A stretch of DNA of 64,000 nt. Source: Qipengyuania flavescens (GTDB lineage: Bacteria; Pseudomonadota; Alphaproteobacteria; Sphingomonadales; Sphingomonadaceae). This document shows, one piece after another, positions 54,098 to 58,567 of the stretch (position 1 is its first letter; each line of letters opens with the position of its first letter). The translations under genes were made by a program, and so were the position numbers. The stretch spans positions 620,001 to 684,000 of the forward strand of contig NZ_JARULD010000001.1 in assembly GCF_029688735.1 (NCBI RefSeq), written 5' to 3'. The notes below the pieces were generated by a model. The model was not told the origin of the DNA. It made no database searches and saw only the letters and a list, made by a program, of their open reading frames with translations.

Positions 54098-54922
54098 CTA
54101 GCGCTCCAGCCGCTCGGTCAGCATATGCGGCGTCGCCATCCCGAAGGCGAGCGCTACGGCAAGTTCGAGCGCGAGCCAGCCGCACCATACCGCCAGCGCG
54201 ATTGCCGCTGCGGCCAGCGTGGCAAAGGCGGTGGGCAACGCGATTGCCTTGAGAACCTGTGACGCGCCGTATCGCGCGACTTGGCGCTGCTGCACCGGGA
54301 GGGCATGCATGCCGAGAAAGATCAAGCCCACGGCGAGGACCGGGTGGAACAAGAGGCAGGCCAACGCAGCAAGCCCCGCGGACGTTGCGCCTGCGTGGTG
54401 CAGTGCCATCGAGGTCGCAGCAGCAAGCAAAGCCGCACCTCCCACTACGGCGAGAAGCAGCATGAGCAGCGCCGGCGGCGTTTGGCCGAGTGCAGCAGTG
54501 AAGACGGTCCCGGTCGCCTCTAACCTGAGCAGCGCGCTACCCCCCACCGCAAGTCCGGCGATCGCCAGCCGTGGCAGCAGGTCCATCCCGCTATCGCTGC
54601 GGGCGAAATGCCATGCGGAAAAAGCGAGGAAGATCGACAGGCCGAGTACCGGCCAGGCGAGATAAAGCGAGGCGATCGCGAGACCGGTCACCACATAAGC
54701 GGCGACCAGCACCCCCGAAAAGGCGCGCAGTTCGCCGTCGTTCTCGTCACCAGCGCCATGGCCCAGACCGAGAACGAACAGGCCGATTCCCACGGCCAGC
54801 GCCACGGCCGATCCGGCCAGCTGGGCGAGGCCACCGACGGCGAAAAGCACGATAAAAACATAGGGGGCCCCGGCACCGAGCCGGGACCCCCTGTTCGATC
54901 CGGAGATCGGGCGTGACGCCAT
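54098..54922 (-). CDS. blh: Brp/Blh-type beta-carotene 15,15'-dioxygenase
   Basis: 274 residues, integral membrane protein with about eight helices. It cleaves beta-carotene to two retinals with an iron ligated by histidines. Candidate ligands are the His in GLGHGAGDE (about 55), SAWHFARSD (about 96), FLGMHALPV (about 205) and ATPHMLTE (near the C-terminus), matching the Brp/Blh pattern. The ATG shares a base with the rhodopsin stop (TGATG), so the retinal-forming enzyme is translated directly from the rhodopsin message. Beta-carotene would come from carotenoid genes elsewhere. Confidence 0.9.
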   Translation of the reverse strand: MASRPISGSNRGSRLGAGAPYVFIVLFAVGGLAQLAGSAVALAVGIGLFVLGLGHGAGDENDGELRAFSGVLVAAYVVTGLAIASLYLAWPVLGLSIFLAFSAWHFARSDSGMDLLPRLAIAGLAVGGSALLRLEATGTVFTAALGQTPPALLMLLLAVVGGAALLAAATSMALHHAGATSAGLAALACLLFHPVLAVGLIFLGMHALPVQQRQVARYGASQVLKAIALPTAFATLAAAAIALAVWCGWLALELAVALAFGMATPHMLTERLER

Positions 54923-55788
54923 CAGTCGCCGCGGATCGAGGCTGCCGTCGAACCGGCAGGCGTCGTCGAAAGCGCCTCGGCCGAGGGCAGATACCCCTCC
55001 AGCGCGCTGCGTCGCAGGACATAGCGCGACAGGATCACGCCGTAGATCAGCTTCGACGAGATGTCGGCGATGCTGAAGAGCAGCTGGCGTACCACAACTA
55101 CGTCGCCGGTGAAGCCGAGCTGCGGCAGCGCGTAAGCGATCGGGTAGAGGCCCCAGGTCGCAAGGAAGAACCACCAGATGTTCTTCGGCCAAGCTTTGAG
55201 TTCTGCCGGGCTGTTGGCGATGCCTGCGGTGATAACACCGCGCACCTCGATAATCAGCCAGACGAAGAAAACGGTCGAGATGACACCCCAGATGTTAAGC
55301 CGCGACCAGTCGCCTGTCTCGCCGAACTGGCCGTAGAGGCCGGTCCAGATCATCAGCAGGGCCGGGATCGCCATGCGAAACGCGCGCTTGTGCAGATCGG
55401 GCCGGGCCAATGCGAAGGCGATGGGCAGCTGGGTCAACAGCAGCGGGACCGTGATCGTCCAGTTGCCGTAGCGATAGGCATTGGTGAAGGTCTCGCCTTC
55501 CGTCACCGGCTGGTACATGCCGCCGACGAATTCGTAGGTTTCCTGCCAGGTGGTGAATTCGCGCAGCAGGCTGAGCCCCGCGCTGGCCATGACGACTGCC
55601 GAAATGATCGGCACCACGCGATAACGCGGCGCGAGCTGCATCGACGCCATCAGGAAGTAGAGAATGAAGGCGAAATGCGCGCCATAGCTGACCATCAGGA
55701 TCAGCGATCCCGAAGTGTACTGCCCGGCGGTGAGAGTAACCAGATTTTCGATATTGCCAACAACGTTGGCATCGACAGGAGCAATCAT
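54922..55788 (-). CDS. Microbial rhodopsin, NTQ type: predicted light-driven chloride pump
   Basis: The ATG at 55788 follows AAAGGA and gives 288 residues and seven helices. Helix C reads RYGNWTITVPLLLTQ: Arg106, then Asn109, Thr113, Gln120 at the positions of Asp85/Thr89/Asp96 of bacteriorhodopsin. This NTQ set marks inward chloride pumps such as those of Nonlabens and Fulvimarina; proton pumps have DTE/DTD and sodium pumps NDQ. Helix G has IADISSKLIYG with the retinal Schiff-base Lys246 and counterion Asp242. The N-terminal extension and general sequence resemble the NDQ/NTQ clade. The operon is rhodopsin-blh. The pump direction and ion are inference from motif. Confidence 0.93.
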   Translation of the reverse strand: MIAPVDANVVGNIENLVTLTAGQYTSGSLILMVSYGAHFAFILYFLMASMQLAPRYRVVPIISAVVMASAGLSLLREFTTWQETYEFVGGMYQPVTEGETFTNAYRYGNWTITVPLLLTQLPIAFALARPDLHKRAFRMAIPALLMIWTGLYGQFGETGDWSRLNIWGVISTVFFVWLIIEVRGVITAGIANSPAELKAWPKNIWWFFLATWGLYPIAYALPQLGFTGDVVVVRQLLFSIADISSKLIYGVILSRYVLRRSALEGYLPSAEALSTTPAGSTAASIRGD

Positions 55789-55816
55789 AAGCAGTCCTTT
55801 CTCGACTGCGTCCACC

Positions 55817-55871: not shown

Positions 55872-55967
55872 GTGGCAACGAAATGGAAGGCCGCACGTTA
55901 GGTTCCCGATCCGCCGTCTATTCTCGGTGGTGTCTTGGGGTGTAGAAATTTGGTTCGACCAACTCGC

Positions 55968-57254
55968 ATGACCGGCTTGCCGGGGTGGATCGCCCACCGC
56001 CTGTTCGCGAATTACTGGTTGCTGGCGGTATGCGCCGTGGTCGGCGCCATTCCGGTGGCCCTCGGCATTCTGTGGCTCGACCGGGAAGGCGGCACGGCAT
56101 GGCTGTTGGCGCGCGACCTTGCGACGGTCGAGACCTCCGATACGGCCAAGGATTTCGTCGGCGTTGCGGCTGGCATCAACGCCGCTTTCATCACGCTCTA
56201 CTTCTCCATCACACTCATCGTGCTGAGCCTTGCGGCCGGCAATCTGGGCGTGCGCCTGATCGACCGCTGGGTAGAGCGTCCCCTCGTCCGAGTGAGCATT
56301 GCCGGGCTTTCATTCTGCCTCATCGTCTCGCTCGTCGCGATGCTGTCGATCGATGCGGAGGCACCGCTGGAGGATACGCCGTTGCTGCTGGTGGGCACGG
56401 TACTGTTCCTCCAGGCCGTGAATGTCGCAATGCTCGCGGTGTCGCTGCACGACCTTGCTCGCACGATGTTCGTCGACACTTCGATCGACAGGCTGGCGAA
56501 CGATTGCGAGGACCGCAGCCTGTCCCTCACGGGCGTCGAACCTGTCGACGACGATCTAGCACATAGCTGCCACGCACCGCGCGAAGGCTATGTGGAGGAC
56601 GTGGATATCCAGAGCTTTTGCAAGGCGTTCTCCGGCTCGCAGAAACGAGTCATCGTTCATGTCGCGCCGGGACAGCATGTCATGAAGGGCGAGCAGCTCA
56701 TCAGCTCGGAAGCCGAGCTCGACGGCCACGATATCAATCGCCTTATCCCGATCGGAGCCTATCGGTCGGACAACCAGGGCGTAGTCTTCCGCATCCGGCT
56801 GATCGTCGAGATCGCCGCACGCGCGCTGTCGCCGGCGATCAACGATTTTTACACGGCCTTAGCCTGCGCCGACAAGCTGGCCGCGGTCATCGAAAGCCAG
56901 ACCAGTACGTTTGTATCCGATGACCACGTGCCCAGTCTGGAGGGCGAGAAATGGCTGATCCTCATCGGTCATGATTTCCGCGGCCTGTTCGTCGATCCTC
57001 TCAACGCCTTCCGGCAGGCTGCATGCCAGTATCCGTCGGTCAGTATCCGGATGATCGACAATTACGCCAGAATTGCCGAGCGGAGTGAGGCGAACGGTGC
57101 AAGCGAAGGCCTGGTCGACATGCTTCGCCAGCTGGCGCTAGACCTCAGTGACCATGCCGTCGCCGTTGCGCAGTTCGACAAAGACCGCCACGACATTCGC
57201 GAGGCTTTCGCGAAAGGTTTTGCGAAGCAGACCGGCACAGAAGGGCACGAATGA
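55968..57254 (+). CDS. DUF2254 membrane protein, first of a tandem pair
   Basis: 428 residues from the ATG at 55968. Four N-terminal membrane helices (about 15-40, 65-95, 105-128, 138-160) precede a soluble region of about 250 residues with LSPAINDFYTALACADKL, the family's conserved ALSPxxNDPFTA-type motif. DUF2254 proteins are widespread predicted membrane proteins without an assigned role. This copy has the altered NDFYT where the second copy keeps NDPFT. It is divergent from the rhodopsin operon and overlaps the next gene by 4 bases. Confidence 0.88.
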   Translation: MTGLPGWIAHRLFANYWLLAVCAVVGAIPVALGILWLDREGGTAWLLARDLATVETSDTAKDFVGVAAGINAAFITLYFSITLIVLSLAAGNLGVRLIDRWVERPLVRVSIAGLSFCLIVSLVAMLSIDAEAPLEDTPLLLVGTVLFLQAVNVAMLAVSLHDLARTMFVDTSIDRLANDCEDRSLSLTGVEPVDDDLAHSCHAPREGYVEDVDIQSFCKAFSGSQKRVIVHVAPGQHVMKGEQLISSEAELDGHDINRLIPIGAYRSDNQGVVFRIRLIVEIAARALSPAINDFYTALACADKLAAVIESQTSTFVSDDHVPSLEGEKWLILIGHDFRGLFVDPLNAFRQAACQYPSVSIRMIDNYARIAERSEANGASEGLVDMLRQLALDLSDHAVAVAQFDKDRHDIREAFAKGFAKQTGTEGHE

Positions 57255-58567
57255 CTGCAGAGATCCGCTTTTTCTGGTCGCGACTGAACGCCAATTACTG
57301 GTTCTATCCGGCGCTGTTTTCCATTCTCGCCGCGATCCTCGCCTTCGCGATGGTCACGATCGACCGGCTGGGTTTTGCCGAATTCCTGAACGATATAAGC
57401 TGGATCATCCCGGCGCGTCCCGATGGCGCCTCCACCATGTTGAGCGTGATGGCGGGCAGCATGATCGGCGTCGCCTCGACCGTCTTTTCCATCACCATCG
57501 CCGCCGTCGCCTATGCCAGCGGCAATTACGGCCCGCGCCTGCTGACCAATTTCATGGAAGATCGCGGCAACCAGCTGAGCCTCGCGACCTTCATCGGCAG
57601 CTTCGTCTATGCGCTGATCGTGCTGCGCGCGGTGCGGGGCGAGGACGAAACAGCAGCCTCGATCGAAACGGCCGGGGCCACCGCCCTGCCCGGCTTCACA
57701 CCGCAACTGTCGCTGCTGGTCGCCTATGTCTTGATGGCATTGTGCGTCGCGGTGCTCGTTTTCTTTCTCAACCACATCCCGTCCAGCATTCGCATCAACA
57801 AGGTGCTGAAGGGAATCGGGGAGCGGCTGCTGGAAACCATCAAGGATACCTATCCGGTCGAAGACGAGTTTACCGATCCCGTCGAACCCAAGGGCGGCGA
57901 ACCGCTGGAGGCTTGGAAAACCGGCTATGTACAGATGATCGATTTCTCCGACCTCGCGGCCATCGGGAAAGACTCAGGCTGCACCTTCTCGTTGAAGGTC
58001 CGCACCGGCGACTTCGTGCATCCCAAGATGGTGTTGGTAGAAATCGACGGCTGCGACCCGGACAAGGTCGAGGACCGTGTCCGCGAAAGCTTCACGATCG
58101 GCGCTACGCGCACGCCGGAGCAGGATCCGCAGTTCCTGATCGACGAGCTCGTCGAGATCGGCTTGCGCGCGCTGTCGCCCGGTATCAACGATCCGTTCAC
58201 CGCCATCACCGCGCTCCACTGGCTCGGCGCGGCAACTGCCGAAATCGGGCGGCGGGACCTGCGCAAGCATATCTGCGGCGACGATGAGGATGGTTGCCCC
58301 GTCATCCCCCTGCCCGACGATTTCGCGCACTACGTAAAGCGCGGCTTCGGCGCGATCCGCAGTGGCGTGGCGACGTCCCCGCTGGCGGCGGAAGTCATGC
58401 TGGACACGCTTGCCCATGCTGCAGTGCCGATCGGCGACGAGCGCCGCCAGGCCTTGCTCAAACAGGAGGCTGAACGGCTTGCGGCACAGGCGCGGCTGGC
58501 GCTCGTGGGCCCGGACCTCGAACGGTTCGAGACTCACGTGACCGAGTTCAACAAGACCTTCTGGTAA
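57251..58567 (+). CDS. DUF2254 membrane protein, second of a tandem pair
   Basis: 438 residues, same plan as the upstream gene: four helices (about 18-40, 65-90, 110-130, 155-180) and a soluble C-terminal half with LRALSPGINDPFTAITAL at about 308. ASTVFSITIAAVAYASGNYGPRLL at helix 2 is the hallmark of the family. The ATGA overlap with the first copy implies a hetero-oligomeric complex. The function is not known; ion transport or channel activity is a guess. Confidence 0.9.
   Translation: MTAEIRFFWSRLNANYWFYPALFSILAAILAFAMVTIDRLGFAEFLNDISWIIPARPDGASTMLSVMAGSMIGVASTVFSITIAAVAYASGNYGPRLLTNFMEDRGNQLSLATFIGSFVYALIVLRAVRGEDETAASIETAGATALPGFTPQLSLLVAYVLMALCVAVLVFFLNHIPSSIRINKVLKGIGERLLETIKDTYPVEDEFTDPVEPKGGEPLEAWKTGYVQMIDFSDLAAIGKDSGCTFSLKVRTGDFVHPKMVLVEIDGCDPDKVEDRVRESFTIGATRTPEQDPQFLIDELVEIGLRALSPGINDPFTAITALHWLGAATAEIGRRDLRKHICGDDEDGCPVIPLPDDFAHYVKRGFGAIRSGVATSPLAAEVMLDTLAHAAVPIGDERRQALLKQEAERLAAQARLALVGPDLERFETHVTEFNKTFW

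What the first reader, a model, noticed from the sequence alone, without database searches (positions are those of the whole stretch)
54922..55788. NTQ-type rhodopsin: predicted inward chloride pump in an erythrobacter-like genome
Helix C carries Arg106-Tyr-Gly-Asn109-Trp-Thr-Ile-Thr113 and Gln120, the NTQ triad of chloride-pumping rhodopsins, with Lys246 as retinal site. The motif is read directly; that NTQ proteins pump chloride is known for the Nonlabens and Fulvimarina pumps; that this protein does so is inference. Gly108 and Thr111 next to the triad, and Thr119 before Gln, are candidates for spectral or ion-affinity tuning.
Basis: partly seen in the sequence, partly recalled or inferred. 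Interest (0 to 1): 0.7.

Follow-up and report, generated by a model that had tools for sequence, protein, structure and literature searches.

The report
Light-driven chloride pump, known type
This is an intact bacterial gene for a light-powered protein that most likely pumps chloride into the cell, a close relative of pumps already studied in other marine bacteria, so the gene itself is ordinary; a neighbouring membrane gene of unknown function is the only part that might be new.

Summary
Window 54922..55788, on the MINUS strand, is an intact 288-residue rhodopsin with N109/T113/Q120, R106, D242 and K246. It is 75% identical to Fulvimarina pelagi rhodopsin (FR), a chloride pump of the literature, and lies in the same clade, apart from sodium (NDQ) and proton (DTE) pumps. 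The residues that bind chloride in the Nonlabens structure are kept. I judge it a light-driven inward chloride pump, absorbing near 520 nm. G108, T111 and T119 are clade features, not peculiar to it. Related NTQ pumps are on published trees: a new member of a known kind.

Added here: it overlaps a retinal-forming blh gene, with a covarying terminator-like hairpin between them; it is the genome's only rhodopsin, under strong purifying selection; a divergent DUF2254 membrane gene occurs in 17 of 24 NTQ genomes of the family sample against 13 of 373 others. Fulvimarina has the pump without that gene, so a functional link is speculative.

The parts
54922..55788 (-). NTQ rhodopsin (ClR), 288 aa: R106, N109, T113, Q120, D242, Schiff-base K246
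   Evidence: Pfam PF01036 108.4 bits; PDB chloride pumps are the best matches; NTQ clade; residue map
55795..55800 (-). AAAGGA ribosome-binding-site-like element, 6 bases before the ATG
   Evidence: read from the sequence
54098..54922 (-). blh, Brp/Blh-type beta-carotene 15,15'-dioxygenase, makes retinal; its first possible ATG shares one base with the rhodopsin stop (TGATG). In many relatives the match to it begins only at residue 24 to 34, so a start further down is possible
   Evidence: Pfam PF15461 46.7 bits, cut-off 28; NCBIfam TIGR03753 62.1 bits, below its cut-off 95.25; only PF15461 match in the genome
54862..54892 (-). 13-pair GC-rich hairpin followed by ATGTTTTTAT, intrinsic-terminator-like, between rhodopsin and the conserved part of blh
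   Evidence: z -4.4; relatives with compensatory changes
55935..57254 (+). DUF2254a, divergently placed membrane protein of unknown function (listed start TTG; an in-frame ATG lies at residue 12)
   Evidence: Pfam PF10011; synteny; co-distribution
57251..58567 (+). DUF2254b, second DUF2254 protein, part of the general locus; present in 14 of the 15 fetched same-genus loci that lack the rhodopsin
   Evidence: Pfam PF10011
51979..54096 (+). prolyl oligopeptidase family gene, convergent with blh; flank used to find the same site in relatives

Best explanation
The gene encodes a light-driven inward chloride pump of the NTQ (ClR) type. In the dark a chloride ion, held by Asn109 and Thr113, serves as counterion of the protonated retinal Schiff base on Lys246 in place of the missing carboxylate; Arg106 and Asp242 complete the charge cluster, and Gln120 lines the cytoplasmic half. 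Light isomerises retinal, the ion passes the Schiff base to the cytoplasm and a new one enters from outside. Retinal is supplied by the overlapping blh gene; a hairpin between the two genes probably lets only part of the transcripts continue into blh, so that more pump than enzyme is made. As the only rhodopsin of the genome it would add membrane potential (inside negative) and chloride, not a proton gradient directly. Shown: residues, family, clade, gene order, hairpin. Inferred: transport, direction, expression, termination, physiology.
For: The residues of the Nonlabens chloride path are matched: N98->N109, T102->T113, Q109->Q120, R95->R106, N92->N103, Q224->Q235, D231->D242, K235->K246 (roles). 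75% identity over 288 columns to Fulvimarina FR, reviewed as a chloride pump with chloride-dependent colour (passages). Clade: 41 NTQ rows, all from alphaproteobacteria, 100/100, with NM-R3 next (95/71), NDQ and DTE outside. Fold match to NM-R3 and ErNaR, TM about 0.8. Purifying selection, dN/dS 0.027 to 0.044 against three congeners. blh overlap and a crtY/crtI/crtB-like cluster elsewhere in the genome give a route to retinal.
Against: No functional measurement. T228 of NM-R3 is Ser239, A50 is Val59 and K46 of its second chloride site is Arg55 here, so details of the ion path may differ. The Foldseek list puts the sodium pump ErNaR first, level with NM-R3, as both are close relatives. The join of NM-R3 with the alphaproteobacterial rows is only 95/71 and the program warns that long branches meet there. 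blh stays under its NCBIfam cut-off.
Confidence: 0.93

Rival explanations
1. Outward proton pump that has lost its usual carboxylates.
For: Same superfamily; proton-pump-like DTE rhodopsins are common in the family sample (30 DTE rows in the tree).
Against: No acid at the counterion or donor positions (N109, Q120); NTQ and NDQ rows together are split from all DTE rows with 100/100.
Confidence: 0.02
2. Outward sodium pump related to ErNaR/KR2.
For: 40.8% identity to ErNaR, as close as NM-R3 at 39.6%; Foldseek's first hit is ErNaR.
Against: The Asp of NDQ is Thr113 here, and Glu64 of ErNaR falls on Ser73 (alignment); the NDQ rows lie outside the NTQ clade.
Confidence: 0.02
3. Anion pump in principle, but used mainly for another anion or as a light sensor.
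For: Selectivity cannot be read from sequence; sole rhodopsin of the genome.
Against: No transducer among the ten neighbouring proteins scanned; the nearest are blh, a peptidase and two DUF2254 proteins; FR and NM-R3 are chloride pumps in the literature.
Confidence: 0.03

Closest known systems
Fulvimarina pelagi rhodopsin FR (L013)
   Same: NTQ with the same RYGNWTIT..LTQ residues, 75% identity over 288 columns, blh beside it
   Different: DVFSK instead of DISSK around the Schiff-base Lys; no DUF2254a orthologue in the genome (best DUF2254 match 28%, 42 bits); another family of bacteria
Sphingopyxis (Novosphingopyxis) baekryungensis ClR (L017)
   Same: NTQ, 68% identity; a maximum of 518 nm is listed for the species' NTQ protein (passage; same gene assumed from the species name)
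   Different: T119 is Ile; no blh match in the fetched stretch; a DUF2254a relative (40%) lies elsewhere in the genome
Nonlabens marinus NM-R3 / ClR (6ab9, 5g28)
   Same: Chloride-site residues; fold
   Different: 39.6% identity; flavobacterium; M100 and L108 in place of T111 and T119
Citromicrobium ClRs (CbClR, CsClR)
   Same: NTQ, same chromosomal slot next to nadA; on a published tree (legend passage)
   Different: 66% identity (JLT1363); no blh or DUF2254a match in the fetched stretch
ErNaR, sodium pump of Erythrobacter sp. HL-111 (8qle)
   Same: Fold; Arg/Asp/Lys cluster; 40.8% identity
   Different: NDQ, extra Glu64 (passages), outside the NTQ clade

Membership tests
NTQ chloride-pumping rhodopsin (ClR) | Bacteriorhodopsin fold with Schiff-base lysine | tested here: met
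   PF01036 108.4 bits, K246, Foldseek TM about 0.8 to NM-R3
NTQ chloride-pumping rhodopsin (ClR) | Asn/Thr/Gln at the BR 85/89/96 positions | tested here: met
   N109, T113, Q120 align with N98, T102, Q109 of NM-R3
NTQ chloride-pumping rhodopsin (ClR) | Arg95/Asp231 charge pair and Asn92 | tested here: met
   R106, D242, N103
NTQ chloride-pumping rhodopsin (ClR) | Placement in the ClR clade | tested here: met
   100/100 within 41 NTQ rows including FR; NM-R3 next at 95/71 with a long-branch warning
NTQ chloride-pumping rhodopsin (ClR) | The '3 omega' stack of three aromatic residues | not tested
   named in passages; residues not mapped
NTQ chloride-pumping rhodopsin (ClR) | Chloride-dependent colour and inward chloride transport | not testable with these tools
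   needs protein
DTE proton pump | Carboxylates at BR 85 and 96 | tested here: not met
   N109, Q120
NDQ sodium pump | Asp at BR 89 | tested here: not met
   T113
Carotenoid-antenna rhodopsin | Glycine of the fenestration (XR Gly156, GR Gly178; role recalled) | tested here: met
   Gly168 aligns with both; Gly in all 41 NTQ rows
Carotenoid-antenna rhodopsin | Bound carotenoid transferring energy | not testable with these tools
   a myxol-bound NM-R3 entry exists (9jow, title only); nothing known for this protein
Brp/Blh carotene dioxygenase (54098..54922) | Family profile score | tested here: inconclusive
   over the Pfam cut-off (46.7 vs 28), under the NCBIfam cut-off (62.1 vs 95.25)

The most novel reading that the evidence does not exclude
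blh, the chloride pump and the divergent DUF2254a gene form a three-gene unit in which DUF2254a, a membrane protein for which no fold relative was found, is a dedicated partner of the chloride pump in one clade, for instance a path or sensor that handles the pumped chloride or the cell volume. For it: 17 of 24 NTQ genomes carry DUF2254a against 13 of 373 others; in four genomes the three genes sit together away from the usual locus; in one close relative all three are decaying while their neighbours are intact. Against it: Fulvimarina, Algimonas and Citromicrobium have the pump without it, 13 genomes of the sample have it without the pump, and two relatives have a damaged DUF2254a (L002, L016) beside an intact pump. 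Shared ancestry at one locus could explain all of this.
Probability: 0.15. Interest if true: 0.6.

Novelty: new member of a known kind. Interest (0 to 1): 0.25.

Why it matters
It shows that NTQ chloride pumps recur at one chromosomal slot in erythrobacters and their kin, and that in half of the NTQ genomes sampled (12 of 24) the pump is the only rhodopsin found. In the window's own genome no reaction-centre match was found either (not searched in the others). Such bacteria are a simple system for asking what a chloride pump alone does for a cell, a question hard to put to flavobacteria that carry proton and sodium pumps as well. The DUF2254a neighbour gives a cheap side test.

Tried and rejected

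Not done: reading of the papers in full; a species tree to count independent gains and losses of DUF2254a; a search of metagenomes or viral contigs; a reaction-centre search in the other genomes.

Full report
WHAT IS THERE. The stretch 54922..55788 is an intact gene on the minus strand. It starts at ATG 55788 behind AAAGGA and ends in TGA; the last base of the stop is the first of an ATG that opens the blh frame 54922..54098 (TGATG). The protein has 288 residues and matches Pfam Bac_rhodopsin at 108.4 bits.

WHICH RHODOPSIN. Against solved structures the best matches are the chloride-pumping rhodopsin of Nonlabens marinus (188.7 bits), then the sodium pump ErNaR (180.1), with KR2 near 130. In a tree of 78 rows (six of them reference chains; twelve rows of other motifs left out), the window's protein sits in a 41-row clade of NTQ rows with support 100/100; NM-R3 joins it at 95/71, while the NDQ pair (ErNaR and L055) and the DTE rows lie outside. 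The program warns of long branches, so the exact place of NM-R3 is soft, but the NTQ clade is not. Fulvimarina FR lies inside the 41 rows among sequences of the window's family, at 75% identity over 288 columns (79% by the best segment), which suggests a transfer into Fulvimarina; the fork there is unresolved.

HOW IT SHOULD WORK. In the Nonlabens structure chloride is bonded by Asn98, Thr102 and the Schiff base, Arg95 and Asp231 form the charge pair, Asn92 is needed for full activity, and Gln109 lines a cytoplasmic cavity (passages of PMC4999514). All of these are present as N109, T113, R106, D242, N103 and Q120. FR, the nearest protein with published work, changes colour with chloride and is reviewed as a chloride pump (passages of PMC4585134; the original paper was not seen). 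The NTQ protein of Sphingopyxis baekryungensis is listed at 518 nm (passage of PMC7979833), and the position of the proteorhodopsin colour switch is Leu117 here (mapping recalled), so a maximum near 520 nm is expected. Inference: inward chloride transport adds inside-negative potential.

THE SUPPOSED TUNING RESIDUES. Among 51 NTQ reading frames of the fetched loci (some genes came in twice), position 108 is Gly in 50, position 111 Thr in 49, position 119 Thr in 40. FR has all three. They mark the clade and not this protein.

RETINAL SUPPLY AND THE HAIRPIN. blh is the only PF15461 match in the genome. A cluster with crtY, crtI and a crtB-like gene (the last under its cut-off in the short frame scanned) lies about 41 kb beyond the window's end. 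Between the rhodopsin stop and the conserved part of blh stands a 13-pair hairpin with a T-rich tail, z -4.4 against shuffles. By my count of the rows, a hairpin of -24 kcal/mol or stronger with a T run lies within 90 bases of the stop in 24 of 41 distinct NTQ downstream stretches; of the 26 with blh adjacent, 14 have it and 12 gave none or a weak one. In eleven aligned hairpins out of those 14 (three near-identical ones left out), 99.3% of cells pair and 10 of 13 pairs show changes on both sides (0 of 500 shuffles). They were chosen because they fold, which inflates the share paired; the double changes are the better evidence. In the window the hairpin lies inside the frame of the longest blh reading. 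The likely meaning is partial termination, giving more pump than enzyme.

THE GENOME AND ITS KIN. The genome (2.98 Mb, 13 contigs) has one rhodopsin and no match to the reaction-centre family PF00124. In 397 genomes of the same family in the collection, 58 match PF01036; 24 carry NTQ genes by motif (71 of 76 match rows were read), of which 12 have no other rhodopsin match and 15 have only NTQ kinds. In 60 genomes of the same genus searched with this protein, 14 carry an orthologue at 75% identity or more, one carries a relic (G434), one only a distant rhodopsin, and 44 gave no match. nadA lies upstream in 37 of 49 NTQ loci fetched (some genes twice), and the fullest order is nadA - (peptidase) - blh - ClR - DUF2254a - DUF2254b - EamA - OYE; the Citromicrobium group, L059 and L061 have ClR in the slot without a blh or DUF2254a match. 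Selection on ClR is strong: dN/dS 0.027 to 0.044 against three congeners, against 0.16 to 0.20 for blh and 0.07 to 0.12 for DUF2254a.

THE NEIGHBOUR DUF2254a. Its matches in the family sample fall in two groups with a gap (199 bits and more, 106 and less). Counting the first group, 17 of 24 NTQ genomes have it and 13 of 373 others; by genus, 12 of 13 and 6 of 83 (the Fisher values there ignore kinship). In L012 (fetched again as L081), L076, L077 and L078 the three genes stand together without nadA or DUF2254b in the fetched stretch, and in Hellea (L021) a 32% relative stands beside the ClR. Of 15 same-genus loci with the peptidase but no ClR, 13 have no DUF2254a and two (L136, L141) do. In G434 only pieces of blh, ClR and DUF2254a remain while nadA, peptidase and DUF2254b are whole. 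Against a functional link: Fulvimarina, Algimonas and Citromicrobium JLT1363 have no orthologue, 13 genomes have it without NTQ, L002 has it with a large internal gap and L016 split over two frames, both beside an intact ClR. The predicted structure (pLDDT 84) has no PDB match at E <= 0.001. I regard it as an open lead.

NOVELTY. NTQ pumps of Fulvimarina, Citromicrobium and Sphingopyxis were already on published trees or lists (passages of PMC4585134 and PMC4831467). This gene is a further, very typical member. I found no paper on DUF2254 beside a rhodopsin in the one search made for it (two papers listed), which covers only the held library.

Noticed in passing
L024 / L128 (unnamed handle G434, same genus): blh, chloride pump and DUF2254a survive only as pieces while the genes on both sides are whole: loss of the unit in progress.
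   Followed up: partly
L057+L073, L067+L077, L069+L078, L071+L081: Four genomes of one genus carry two NTQ rhodopsins each, one in the nadA slot without a blh match, one with blh (and, in three, DUF2254a) elsewhere.
   Followed up: partly
L025, L026, L027, L028: Genomes with the NTQ pump that also hold a DTV/DTT rhodopsin; in L025 and L028, read in full, Pro stands in place of the usual helix-G Asp, and L025 matches Anabaena sensory rhodopsin and xenorhodopsin best: a possible inward proton pump or sensor beside an inward chloride pump.
   Followed up: partly
window 54922-55788, residue Gly168: The glycine that opens the carotenoid window in xanthorhodopsin is kept in all 41 NTQ rows, and a myxol-bound NM-R3 structure exists (title): the pump may carry an antenna.
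   Followed up: partly
window 55935-58567: Two tandem, strongly diverged DUF2254 genes (about 26% identical) with overlapping ends; the second is present in 14 of 15 fetched same-genus loci that lack the rhodopsin.
   Followed up: partly
L002 4083-4886: DUF2254a with an internal deletion of about 180 residues beside an intact chloride pump.
   Followed up: no
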